Source: Gloeocapsa sp. PCC 7428
GTDB taxonomy: Bacteria > Cyanobacteriota > Cyanobacteriia > Cyanobacteriales > Chroococcidiopsidaceae
DNA: 64,000 nucleotides
Assembly (NCBI RefSeq): GCF_000317555.1
Contig: NC_019745.1
Span: 3,038,001 to 3,102,000, forward strand
Direction of reading: 5' to 3'
Part shown: positions 10,990 through 18,837 of the stretch, in pieces
Numbering within the stretch: the stretch's first letter is position 1
How the letters are laid out: the number at the start of each line of letters is the position of its first letter
Notes under the pieces: model-generated
Database searches by the model: none
Seen by the model: only the letters and a program-made list of their open reading frames with translations
What the model was told of the DNA's origin: nothing
Position numbers and translations under genes: made by a program

Positions 10990-12303
10990 ATGCAGCCTTT
11001 CCTGCTAAGACGCTATGCAATTCGCCTCGGAAGACGATATGTCCTTGCGGCGACAGGCATCATTTTTCTCGGAATCATGGGATGTTCCAGAATCGATGCG
11101 ATCGATTCGGTTGTCGCCCAGCCTCGCTCTTTGAATCGTCAAGATCCCGACAATATACAAGTGACACCATCGGCAGTGGATAACAAATTAGTTGCAGCGA
11201 ATACACGATTTGGGTTTAAACTCTTTTCGGAGATCTTGAGACAACAAAGCGATCGCAATATTTTCCTCTCACCGACTAGTGTCGCGATTCTGCTAGAAAT
11301 GCTCTACAACGGTGCTGGTGGCGAAACGCAACAAGCAATGGCGAAAACCCTAGAAGTACAAGGCATTAGCCTCCAAGATATTAACGCTGCCAACACCGCG
11401 CTGCTCAATACTCTGACAAATCCCGATGCGAATGTACAACTGGCGATCGCGAACTCACTTTGGGCAAAGCAAGAATACCCCATCCGACCCGATTTTTTAC
11501 AGCGAACTCAAAGCTTTTACAAAGCACAAGTCAGCAATTTAGACTTTGATTCCCCCGATGCGACAAATACAATTAATCAATGGGTAAACCAAAACACGAA
11601 TGGCAGAATTGAGCAGATTGTAGACGAGATTAATCCTGAAGATGTGCTGTTTTTGATCAACGCGATTTACTTTAAAGGTCAATGGACCGACGAGTTCGAC
11701 AAAAGCCAAACAACAGATGCGCCATTTTATCTAACAAGCGGTACGCCGAAACAACACCCGCTGATGTCGCAAACGGGTAGATACCGATACTACGAAAATC
11801 CACAGTTTCAAGCCGTTAGCCTACCCTACGGCGAAAATGGCAGACTCAGTTTATACGTCTTCTTACCTCGTCAAAACTCAAATTTATCAAACTTTTATCA
11901 ACAACTCAATTCGGCTAACTGGGAACAGTGGCTAACTCAATTTAACTTGCGTGAAGGCACAGTACGGCTACCGCGTTTTCAAATGGAATATGATGTAACA
12001 CTCAACGATACCCTTAAAGCTTTAGGTATGGGAGTTGCCTTTGCAGACAATGCCAACTTTTCGGGTGTCGGTGACGATTTAGCGCTGAGTGAAGTCAAGC
12101 ATAAAACTTTTGTCGAAGTGAATGAAGAAGGAACCGAAGCGGCGGCTGTGACATCGGGAAGAGTGATGGCGGTATCTGCACCCGTTGCAGAACCTTTCGA
12201 GATGACGGTGAATCGTCCTTTCTTCTGTGCAATTCGCGATAACCAAACAGGAACCGTTTTATTTATGGGTTCTATCGTCGAACCGCAAGCAATTAGCAAT
12301 TAG
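10990..12303 (+). CDS. Serpin (serine protease inhibitor), predicted lipoprotein
   Basis: This 437-residue protein has a signal sequence ending in the lipobox IMGC (Cys32), so it is probably anchored to the outer face of a membrane. The serpin core starts near residue 60 and ends with the usual NRPFFCAIRD...TGTVLFMGSIVEP. The hinge of the reactive loop, EEGTEAAAVTSG (379-390), has the small residues needed for loop insertion, so it should be inhibitory. Counting from the hinge places P1-P1' at about Val395-Ser396, suiting elastase- or subtilisin-like proteases (inference). It is 94 bases after a subtilase gene. The last codons and stop (AISN) lie in a gcaattagcaattagc repeat. Confidence 0.93.
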   Translation: MQPFLLRRYAIRLGRRYVLAATGIIFLGIMGCSRIDAIDSVVAQPRSLNRQDPDNIQVTPSAVDNKLVAANTRFGFKLFSEILRQQSDRNIFLSPTSVAILLEMLYNGAGGETQQAMAKTLEVQGISLQDINAANTALLNTLTNPDANVQLAIANSLWAKQEYPIRPDFLQRTQSFYKAQVSNLDFDSPDATNTINQWVNQNTNGRIEQIVDEINPEDVLFLINAIYFKGQWTDEFDKSQTTDAPFYLTSGTPKQHPLMSQTGRYRYYENPQFQAVSLPYGENGRLSLYVFLPRQNSNLSNFYQQLNSANWEQWLTQFNLREGTVRLPRFQMEYDVTLNDTLKALGMGVAFADNANFSGVGDDLALSEVKHKTFVEVNEEGTEAAAVTSGRVMAVSAPVAEPFEMTVNRPFFCAIRDNQTGTVLFMGSIVEPQAISN

Positions 12304-12445
12304 CTTTTTTGAAAGCTTTGTCTTGAAAACTCCCCTCAACGCTCTTAACCCGCGCACAGGGGTTTTCACTGTGGCAACGGAGACTCAGGATTATAAATGT
12401 CCTCATCTTAATACGTCTTGCTATAGCAATGAAGGAAGTACAAAT

Positions 12446-13297
12446 ATGTCTCCAATTATGGGGTTGTTGCCTTTTGTTGTCGCGATCGCTTGGACTTCAC
12501 CGGAGCATTTTAGCAGTGTTGAATTGCCAACAAAAAATCAGCAGCGAACGCAGCAGCTAACTCAAGCACGTTGGCAAGAACGATCCGACTTTAGTAAATA
12601 CTTTCAACAAGCTGGAGTTGAAGGCACATTTATTCTCTACGACCTTCAGCAAGATCAATATCTTGTCTATAATTCTGACCGCGCCAACACGCGGTTTCTT
12701 CCCGCCTCAACTTTTAAAATTTTTAACTCTTTGGTTGCGCTTGAACTTGGCACAATCAAGGACGAAAATCAAGTTTTGAAATGGGATGGCGTAACCCGCA
12801 AGTTTCCTGATTGGAACAAAGACCAAACAATGCGAACTGCGATTAAAGACTCTGTGATTTGGTTCTATCAAGAGATGGCAAGGCGTATCGGTCAAGAACG
12901 AATGCAATGCTACATCAACTTGACGAATTACGGTAATCGAGACATTAGCGGTGGCATCGATCAATTTTGGCTACAAGGCGAATTGCGCATTAGTGCCAAA
13001 GAGCAGATTGATTTTTTGGTGAAGTTGTACCGCAATCAGCTGCCATTTTCCCAAAAAACAATGGACACGGTCAAAGACATTTTGATTGATGAACAAACAG
13101 ACAACCACGTATTGCGTGGAAAAACGGGTTGGTTGTGGGATATTTCTCCAGAACTGGGGTGGTATGTCGGCTATCTCGAACGCAGCGATCGTGTTTACTT
13201 TTTGGCTATGAATATTGATATGTCGCGTCCTGAAGATCGACAGGCAAGAATTGGCATTACTCAACAGATCCTACAAAATCTGAAGTTGCTGGAATAA
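12446..13297 (+). CDS. Class D (OXA-type) beta-lactamase family protein
   Basis: I place the start at the ATG at 12446, which has AAGGA upstream and a signal-peptide-like N-terminus (MGLLPFVVAIAW). The open frame extends upstream to 12227, but that part overlaps the serpin gene. All class D motifs are present in the 283-residue product: STFK at 88-91 (Ser nucleophile, Lys to be carboxylated), SVI at 136-138, YGN at 162-164 and KTG at 226-228. Such periplasmic enzymes hydrolyse penicillins. A chromosomal copy in a cyanobacterium is probably intrinsic, though a BlaR-like sensor domain or a penicillin-binding role cannot be excluded. It is third in a run of exported proteins. Confidence 0.92.
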   Translation: MSPIMGLLPFVVAIAWTSPEHFSSVELPTKNQQRTQQLTQARWQERSDFSKYFQQAGVEGTFILYDLQQDQYLVYNSDRANTRFLPASTFKIFNSLVALELGTIKDENQVLKWDGVTRKFPDWNKDQTMRTAIKDSVIWFYQEMARRIGQERMQCYINLTNYGNRDISGGIDQFWLQGELRISAKEQIDFLVKLYRNQLPFSQKTMDTVKDILIDEQTDNHVLRGKTGWLWDISPELGWYVGYLERSDRVYFLAMNIDMSRPEDRQARIGITQQILQNLKLLE

Positions 13298-17736: not shown

Positions 17737-17874
17737 GGGTCAGGGTTCAGAGGGGCAAGGCAATGCCTTGCCCGTATCGGGGGTCAGAGGGTCAGGGTTC
17801 AGAGGGGCAAGGCAATGCCTTGCCCGTATCGGGGGTCAGAGGGTCAGAGCAATGCCTTGCCCGTATCAGGGTTA
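17737..17874. repeat. Tandem 52-base repeat with GGGCAAGGCA palindromes
   Basis: Two full copies (ggggcaaggcaatgccttgc, then ccgtatcgggggtcagaggg, then tcagggttcaga) and a third truncated copy ending gcaatgccttgcccgtatca. Each unit combines the GGGCAAGGCA/TGCCTTGCCC palindrome with GGTCAGA-type words. It fills the spacer between the divergent hydrolase and ArsR-ClpN genes. Confidence 0.85.
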
Positions 17875-17880
17875 AATAAA

Positions 17881-17979
17881 TATTTCTATTAGTATCAATA
17901 GGCGATCGCCCTCATTATATTGTGACAATTCTTCACAAAATTTTAAATTTTATTTTATTATTTCTATTAGACTAGAAAT
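17881..17979. promoter_or_regulatory. Two TATTTCTATTAG boxes with inverted symmetry: likely operator of the ArsR-ClpN gene
   Basis: The exact 12-mer TATTTCTATTAG occurs at 17881-17892 and 17959-17970. The second box is part of the palindrome ATTTCTA-ttagac-TAGAAAT (17960-17979), which ends at the base before the start codon. The first extends into TATTAGTATCAATA, also a near palindrome. ArsR-family regulators bind such 12-2-12-like sites in their own promoters (family knowledge), so autoregulation is inferred. No Shine-Dalgarno is present, and the operator would cover the translation start region. Confidence 0.6.
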
Positions 17980-18837
17980 ATGGAATCAAGCACGGCAAAA
18001 TATGCAGATTTATTTGCGGCACTTGCGTCAGAACCTCGGCTAGAAATTATGCGATTACTCTTTGCAACTTATCCGCAAGGAATGATCGTGAGTGATATTC
18101 AAGCCAAATTACAAATTCCCAATTCAACACTGTCGCATCATCTAGAGAAATTGCGACAAGAGCATCTCATTAGTTCTAGAAAAGAAAAGCAATATATCTG
18201 GTACGCAGTCAACACCAAGACAATCGAAGAGTTATTAGCTTTTCTCTTTAACGGCTGTGCGATCGCTAACCCTCGCAGTAGACAAGACAAGCTAGACCCT
18301 GTTCGCAATCCATTCACGGAGGCAGGATTTATGTTTGAAGGATTCTTAAACTCCATCGAAAGCCTATTTGGTAGTGTGTTTGACCGGATTGTGCTTCCCA
18401 GAGGTTTTGAACGATTTACGCAAAAAGCAACGCAAGTCATTGCGCTAGCCCAAGATGAATCGCGCCGTTTGGGACATCAATACGTTGGTACTGAACAACT
18501 TTTATTAGGACTACTCGGAGAAGGAACCGGAACCGCCGCACAAATTCTTTTAGCCGAAGGACTCAACGTAGAAAATCTGCGAATAGAAGTCGAGAAACGC
18601 ATTGGACGTGGAAAAGGAACGCCGCTGGATATTCCTTTTACACCGAGAGCCAAAAGAGTTTTAGAGCTTTCTGTTGAACAATCGCAGCGCCTAGGCGATC
18701 AATACATTGGTACTGAACACTTACTGTTAGGAATTTTGCGCGAACGTGGTGGCATGGCAGTTCGCGTCCTCGAAAGCTTAGGAGTTAACCTGTATAGCTT
18801 AGAACAGCGAATTCTGCGCTGGAATGGATCTCATTAG
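17980..18837 (+). CDS. ArsR-type HTH regulator fused to a double Clp N-terminal domain
   Basis: Residues 6-90 are an ArsR-like winged helix (LFAALASEPRLEIMRLLF, then IPNSTLSHHLEKLRQ and LISSRKEKQYIWY). The metal-binding ELCVCDL motif of ArsR/SmtB is absent, and the only Cys is Cys93. After a linker (about 95-143), residues 144-275 match the N-domain of ClpC: FERFTQKATQVIALAQDESR, GTEQLLLGLLGEGTG, then IPFTPRAKRVLEL and GTEHLLLGIL. No AAA ATPase follows. Clp N-domains bind adaptors, substrates or arginine-phosphorylated proteins in ClpC systems. This may be a regulator whose activity is set by a ClpC-type ligand, or one that mimics ClpC. The 285-residue frame is uninterrupted. Confidence 0.88.
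   Translation: MESSTAKYADLFAALASEPRLEIMRLLFATYPQGMIVSDIQAKLQIPNSTLSHHLEKLRQEHLISSRKEKQYIWYAVNTKTIEELLAFLFNGCAIANPRSRQDKLDPVRNPFTEAGFMFEGFLNSIESLFGSVFDRIVLPRGFERFTQKATQVIALAQDESRRLGHQYVGTEQLLLGLLGEGTGTAAQILLAEGLNVENLRIEVEKRIGRGKGTPLDIPFTPRAKRVLELSVEQSQRLGDQYIGTEHLLLGILRERGGMAVRVLESLGVNLYSLEQRILRWNGSH

What the first reader, a model, noticed from the sequence alone, without database searches (positions are those of the whole stretch)
17980..18837. ArsR-type DNA-binding domain fused to a ClpC N-terminal domain without ATPase
The HTH (6-90) and both Clp-N repeats (144-275) are in one intact frame. Clp-N domains recognise adaptors, substrates or phospho-arginine in ClpC systems. A regulator carrying one could sense proteostasis status, compete with ClpC for substrates, or be delivered to the protease. 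The HTH lacks the ArsR metal site, so the Clp-N domain is the probable sensor.
Basis: partly seen in the sequence, partly recalled or inferred. Interest (0 to 1): 0.7.

Follow-up and report, generated by a model that had tools for sequence, protein, structure and literature searches.

The report
ArsR repressor wearing a ClpC sensor
A cyanobacterial repressor gene of arsenic-sensor ancestry has swapped its metal-sensing end for the substrate-docking domain of a protein-degrading machine and keeps a likely switch site right in front of its own start codon, so it probably reports on the cell's protein-damage or Clp-protease state.

Summary
Window 17980-18837 (+) is one intact 285-aa frame: an ArsR-type winged helix (about residues 9-90), then a complete ClpC N-domain (143-283), no AAA module. 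I collected 37 such cyanobacterial genes and four held-out ones, one frame-broken; dN/dS is well below 1 in both domains in ten pairs. New: a 20-bp inverted repeat, ATTTCGATTATTCTAGAAAT, lies upstream of 27 of 27 main-group genes, ending at the ATG in 24, and of 0 of 10 in a divergent clade whose recognition helix also changed. In the window's genome this is the only clear copy. Stand-alone ArsR relatives, some beside arsenic genes, share the helix and a related box at their ATG, and carry a Cys pair that main-group fusions lost. Most likely it is an autorepressor with essentially one target, whose metalloid sensor was replaced by a ClpC N-domain. That works like actinobacterial ClpC2, a Clp_N protein that represses itself and is released by an N-domain ligand (PMC10030653), without being a member of that family. 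DNA binding, ligand and effect on ClpC are inferred, not shown.

The parts
17980..18837 (+). Fusion gene: ArsR-type HTH + linker + ClpC N-domain, 285 aa
18004..18249 (+). ArsR-type winged HTH, residues about 9-90; recognition helix NSTLSHHLEKLR at residues 48-59; no Cys pair (single C93 just behind it)
18256..18402 (+). Variable linker, residues 93-141, least constrained of the three parts in nine of the ten pairs compared
   Evidence: alignment; dN/dS
18406..18828 (+). ClpC N-domain, two Clp_N repeats, residues 143-283
17960..17979 (+). Putative autoregulatory operator ATTTCTATTAGACTAGAAAT, ends at the base before the ATG
17956..17961 (+). Possible -10 (TATTAT, with TTCACA at 17932-17937 as -35), overlapping the operator edge; such sites are no commoner here than in shuffles
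   Evidence: 2 found, shuffled mean 1.7
17920..17938 (+). Second inverted repeat TTGTGACAATTCTTCACAA, recognisable by eye in the seven loci that share the downstream arginase-family gene
   Evidence: upstreams printed; single exact copy in the genome plus one with 2 mismatches elsewhere

Best explanation
An autorepressor in which an ArsR-type winged-helix dimer binds the inverted repeat that overlaps its own promoter and abuts its start codon. The ClpC N-domain, fused close to where stand-alone ArsR relatives carry their Cys pair, serves as the sensor. When N-domain ligands rise (unfolded or ClpC-bound substrates, adaptors such as ClpS, or a peptide toxin), they occupy Clp_N and release the HTH, and the cell makes more of the protein. 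The free Clp_N then competes with ClpC for those ligands. Shown by sequence: architecture, conservation, operator-like box, near-exclusive site, co-change of recognition helix and box, kinship with Cys-pair ArsR. Inferred: DNA binding, dimer, ligand, derepression, sponge or competitor role.
For: Box within 4 mismatches upstream of 27 of 27 main-group genes: flush with the ATG in 24, 3 bp away in two (L013, L015), 24 bp away in one (L092); 9 of 11,100 shuffled upstreams. Box columns are 1.3-2.0 bits in 16 of 20 (rows anchored on the best match, near-copies kept). Held-out fusions from the class scan: 4 of 4 with 0-1 mismatch, three flush with a start codon and one (L147) 30 bp away (a fifth row, L146, has the contig length of L013's record and is not counted). 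Two tandem copies in L013 and L015, a second upstream copy in L096. In 27 genomes, 25 sites at up to 3 mismatches: 18 at a fusion, 1 at a frame-broken fusion, 6 elsewhere (all with 3 mismatches) against 11 for the reversed control pattern. TLSHHL helix and box together in 27 of 27 main-group fusions and in 8 of 8 HTH-only relatives (one weak, L113); neither in 10 of 10 of the divergent clade. Neighbours differ by lineage, so the conserved unit is gene plus box. Clp_N keeps both repeat glutamates (E172, E246) in all 27 and F220 and E229 in 0.89 each. ClpC2, a Clp_N protein, represses itself, has an operator 1-2 nt from its ORF, and is derepressed by the N-domain ligand cyclomarin and mildly by heat (PMC10030653 passages).
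Against: The ten divergent-clade fusions have neither the box nor the helix, so they must work otherwise. TTGAC at -35 spacing is seen in 17 of 27 and not in the window's gene or its six nearest-placed relatives. In those seven loci an arginase-family gene lies 19-94 bp downstream on the same strand, so a second target by read-through is possible. With a slightly different pattern one further site with 3 mismatches appears in the window's genome, also present in G430. Two ClpS genes exist here, but nothing links them to this protein. F143, one of the three cyclomarin-face positions, is Phe in only 0.59 of the main group. In the Clp_N tree the divergent clade groups with ClpC rather than with the main group (98/91), so two fusion events are not excluded.
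Confidence: 0.6

Rival explanations
1. Autorepressor in which Clp_N is not a ligand sensor but a handle: ClpC binds or degrades the repressor, or an adaptor brings it to ClpCP, so protease load sets repressor level.
For: Clp_N is nearly a ClpC N-domain (63% identical to that of the genome's own ClpC), so it could dock the same adaptors; two ClpS genes are present.
Against: Isolated N-domains are docking receptors, not known degrons (recalled); the ligand-face positions are mostly kept.
Confidence: 0.2
2. The HTH is the sensor (metal, redox or thiol) and Clp_N is a dimerisation or cargo module.
For: NCBIfam calls the HTH a metalloregulator; stand-alone relatives carry a Cys pair and some sit beside arsenic genes; 9 of 10 divergent-clade fusions keep ECC.
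Against: The Cys pair is absent in 27 of 27 main-group fusions, and the window protein's single Cys is missing in several of them, for example L010-L012.
Confidence: 0.1
3. A regulator of other genes, for example the downstream arginase-family gene or distant proteostasis genes.
For: The arginase-family gene follows 19-94 bp downstream in seven loci, the window's included.
Against: Downstream neighbours are not conserved elsewhere; no other close copy of the box in the genome; 36 loose palindromes against 45 in the control.
Confidence: 0.1

Closest known systems
Actinobacterial ClpC2 (Rv2667 and the M. smegmatis homologue)
   Same: Clp_N protein without AAA; represses itself; operator 1-2 nt from the ORF; derepressed by an N-domain ligand (PMC10030653, passages read)
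   Different: ClpC2 is reported to bind DNA through arginines of the Clp_N domain itself, has another N-terminal part and another operator (CGTCAAC-n5-GTTGACG); here a separate ArsR HTH and ATTTCGATTATTCTAGAAAT
ArsR with type 2 As(III) site (AfArsR; Cys95/96/102, PMC11868830 passages)
   Same: Winged helix of the same family; cyanobacterial stand-alone relatives with an ECC pair share the recognition helix and a related box at the ATG
   Different: Cys pair absent in the main-group fusions, followed instead by linker plus ClpC N-domain; no arsenic gene was recognised among the neighbours looked at. That the ECC pair equals the AfArsR site is by motif and position only
Cyanobacterial/chloroplast ClpC N-domain
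   Same: 63% identical to the N-domain of the ClpC of the same genome; repeat glutamates and most ligand-face residues kept
   Different: No AAA+ modules
Plant SMXL/D53 repressors (recalled; the one search, listed no paper)
   Same: Clp-N-bearing transcriptional repressors
   Different: Eukaryotic, large, no ArsR HTH; resemblance recalled only

Membership tests
ArsR/SmtB family | Winged HTH scoring above the curated cut-off | tested here: met
   NF033788 67.9 bits, cut-off 55; HTH_5 33.5 bits, cut-off 22
Metalloid-sensing ArsR (Cys type) | Cys-based metal(loid) sensing site | tested here: not met
   No CXC or CC; one Cys (C93), not conserved. Excludes only a metalloid-type ArsR, not ArsR/SmtB membership (that some family members lack such a site is recalled)
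ArsR/SmtB family | Inverted repeat at its own promoter | tested here: met
   sequence level only
ArsR/SmtB family | Binds DNA as dimer | not testable with these tools
   structure prediction off
Actinobacterial ClpC2 | Clp_N domain without AAA+ | tested here: met
Actinobacterial ClpC2 | ClpC2 operator CGTCAAC-n5-GTTGACG | tested here: not met
   the conserved box at the start codon is ATTTCGATTATTCTAGAAAT
Actinobacterial ClpC2 | No ArsR HTH; DNA bound by Clp_N arginines | tested here: not met
   N-terminus here is an ArsR HTH; the arginine positions were not compared
Actinobacterial ClpC2 | Autorepression relieved by Clp_N ligand | not testable with these tools
   needs experiment
ClpC/HSP100 | AAA+ modules | tested here: not met
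   ORF ends after Clp_N

The most novel reading that the evidence does not exclude
A sensor swap: a metalloid-type ArsR autorepressor became a dedicated sensor of ClpC N-domain ligands, giving cyanobacteria a self-inducing Clp_N decoy that buffers the ClpCP protease, convergent with mycobacterial ClpC2 but built from different DNA-binding parts.
Probability: 0.5. Interest if true: 0.82.

Novelty: new variant of a known kind. Interest (0 to 1): 0.72.

Why it matters
It would be a bacterial transcription factor whose sensor is the substrate or adaptor receptor of a AAA+ protease, built from other parts than ClpC2. It gives a simple test for what ClpC N-domains recognise in vivo: a single-promoter reporter of N-domain occupancy. 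It also shows how an ArsR repressor can change signal while keeping helix and operator.

Tried and rejected
Looked for a conserved target neighbour: none across lineages. Seven loci, the window's included, share an arginase-family gene, pyrH and frr; elsewhere the aspartate-carbamoyltransferase-like cluster c1, peptide deformylase, or the methionine-aminopeptidase-like cluster c28 is near (c1, c28, pyrH and frr named by eye). Looked for a regulon with a looser palindrome: 36 sites against 45 in the control, no excess. Plasmid search: of 499 matching records, 0 where one place covers 80% of the query. Clp_N tree: the main group does not form one clean clade (4 changes); the divergent clade is one clade (100/100) and groups with ClpC (98/91); the ClpB rows and several fusions are very long branches, so one origin is neither shown nor excluded. 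Arginine kinase search uninformative. Papers: no paper on an ArsR-Clp_N fusion was seen in the listings (open PMC library only; only listings seen); the SMXL search listed none. A first version of the ClpC comparison mis-oriented loci on the minus strand and was replaced.

Full report
Observation. Window 17980-18837 (+) is a single intact 285-aa frame. Pfam and NCBIfam put an ArsR-type winged helix at about residues 9-90 and two Clp_N repeats in the C-terminal half. The nearest solved structures of residues 143-283 are ClpC N-domains. There is no AAA module. In the same genome a ClpC-like 838-aa frame has an N-domain 63% identical to this one, and a second ClpC-like 830-aa frame one 51% identical.

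Conservation. In genome contigs 7 of 9 confirmed loci span both domains. A profile of HTH plus linker (A2) run over 388 genomes of the order matched 40. I fetched 38 stretches from these genomes, leaving three weak or broken HTH-only rows (G629, G508 C28, G438) unfetched. With the window and the loci, 37 full fusions were recognised: 31 in 30 of the 388 genomes and 6 more from genome contigs. One genome (G522) has two copies. The HTH profile over 388 genomes of the class matched 48; full fusions outside the order were G694, G782, G856 and G718, and G880/L149 is frame-broken. G694's contig has the length of L013's record, so these are probably one genome. dN/dS in ten close main-group pairs was 0.02-0.28 (HTH), 0.14-0.43 (linker) and 0.02-0.15 (Clp_N). 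Two Clp_N-only loci, L107 with a frame-broken HTH and L016, lie inside the main-group part of the Clp_N tree, so they look like secondary losses of the HTH.

Operator-like box. Upstream regions showed a box touching the start codon. ATTTCGATTATTCTAGAAAT at up to 4 mismatches is found upstream of 27 of 27 main-group fusions (24 flush with the ATG, two 3 bp away, one 24 bp away) and 0 of 10 of a divergent clade (all from family f13), against 9 of 11,100 shuffled upstreams. Start codons were chosen by a rule, not known. Column information is 1.3-2.0 bits in 16 of 20 box columns and mostly below 0.5 in the 60 bases above it; rows were anchored on the best match and near-copies kept, which favours the box. 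It scores 7.1 of 10 complementary positions against 2.4 in background. A TTGAC at promoter spacing lies upstream in 17 of 27, placing a -10-like TATTCT inside the box in many and the expected transcript start at about the ATG; the window's gene and its six relatives with the arginase-family neighbour lack it and may use another promoter. L013 and L015 carry two copies and L096 a second one upstream. The four held-out fusions have it with 0-1 mismatch.

Near-single site. In the window genome the pattern at up to 3 mismatches occurs only at this gene (read on both strands), while the reversed control pattern has 3 hits. A slightly different pattern run over 27 genomes gave 25 sites: 18 at fusions, 1 at the frame-broken fusion of G334, 6 elsewhere (all with 3 mismatches; two of them are one sequence shared by G000 and G430), against 11 for the reversed control. 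G005 and G441 were missed there because their boxes have 4 mismatches. A looser palindrome gives no excess over control (36 against 45). Nearest genes differ between lineages, and in many main-group loci the next gene is on the other strand or far away. Seven loci of the window's family have the same downstream gene, an arginase-family protein.

Origin. HTH-only relatives found by the same scans carry an ECC Cys pair near their C-terminus. Of the 8 fetched from the order, 5 have the neighbour cluster c14, which in L108 scores as ArsI/CadI, and 3 have c29, which in L108 scores as arsenate reductase; the permease beside L112, L114 and L115 stayed below the curated cut-offs. From the class scan I fetched 15 of about 40 HTH-only rows. 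All 8 and all 15 have the TLSHHL helix and the Cys pair. A related box ends at the ATG in 8 of 8 (L113 weak, 4 of 14 half-site mismatches) and in 14 of 15, at 3-6 mismatches to the fusion consensus; mismatch counts that high are weak alone, and the fixed position is the stronger sign. The main-group fusions keep helix and box and lack the Cys pair (0 of 27); the ten divergent-clade fusions keep ECC in 9 of 10 but have neither the TLSHHL helix nor the box. One held-out fusion, L150, has TMSHHL. The Clp_N domain is thus attached behind the place where the type 2 ArsR sensor lies (AfArsR Cys95/96/102 at the ends of the C-terminal helices; passages of PMC11868830). Equating the two sites is by motif and position, not structure.

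Mechanism. ClpC2 of mycobacteria is a Clp_N protein that binds an operator 1-2 nt from its own ORF, represses itself, is derepressed by cyclomarin (263-fold clpC2 mRNA) and about twofold by heat, and in excess slows ClpC1-dependent casein degradation (passages of PMC10030653; later papers PMC12913811 and PMC10746685, passages). The fusion would have the same logic with a separate DNA-binding domain. The ClpC1 residues critical for cyclomarin (F2, F80, E89; PMC10030653) map, by the start and end offsets of the table, to F143, F220 and E229; the residue-by-residue alignment to that protein was not printed. All three are present here; across the 27 main-group fusions F143 is 0.59, F220 0.89, E229 0.89, and E172/E246 1.00. 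I therefore favour: ligand on Clp_N releases the HTH, the protein rises and competes with ClpC for ligands. The DNA-binding step rests on conservation; the ligand and decoy steps are by analogy.

Limits. No binding or expression data and no structure model. The Clp_N tree does not settle a single origin: the divergent clade groups with ClpC at 98/91. The divergent-clade proteins must work differently or may have lost DNA binding. The literature searches cover only the open PMC library.

Noticed in passing
G000:C1:1501734-1502171 (L004:1501-1938): A 145-aa stand-alone Clp_N protein lies just upstream of an 893-aa open frame with a ClpB-like N-domain in the same genome (ClpB by kinship in the tree and by eye).
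   Followed up: partly
window 17737-17871: Short tandem repeats (52 and 37 bp units) containing GGCAATGCCTTGCC or close to it, upstream of the gene.
   Followed up: no
window 17920-17938: TTGTGACAATTCTTCACAA, a second inverted repeat recognisable in the seven loci with the arginase-family neighbour; possible activator site.
   Followed up: partly
L087, L098, L100, L102: In these four divergent-clade loci the fusion lies 18-110 bp downstream of a gene of cluster c12 (peptide deformylase in L087, tested), in three of them with a dnaA-like cluster (named by eye) next to it; in L099 the c12 gene is two genes away.
   Followed up: partly
L107 (G334) and L149 (G880): Frame-broken fusions; the box in front of both is intact.
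   Followed up: partly
window 10990-13297: Serpin-like ORF and an ORF that reads like a class D beta-lactamase relative (by eye, recalled motifs).
   Followed up: no
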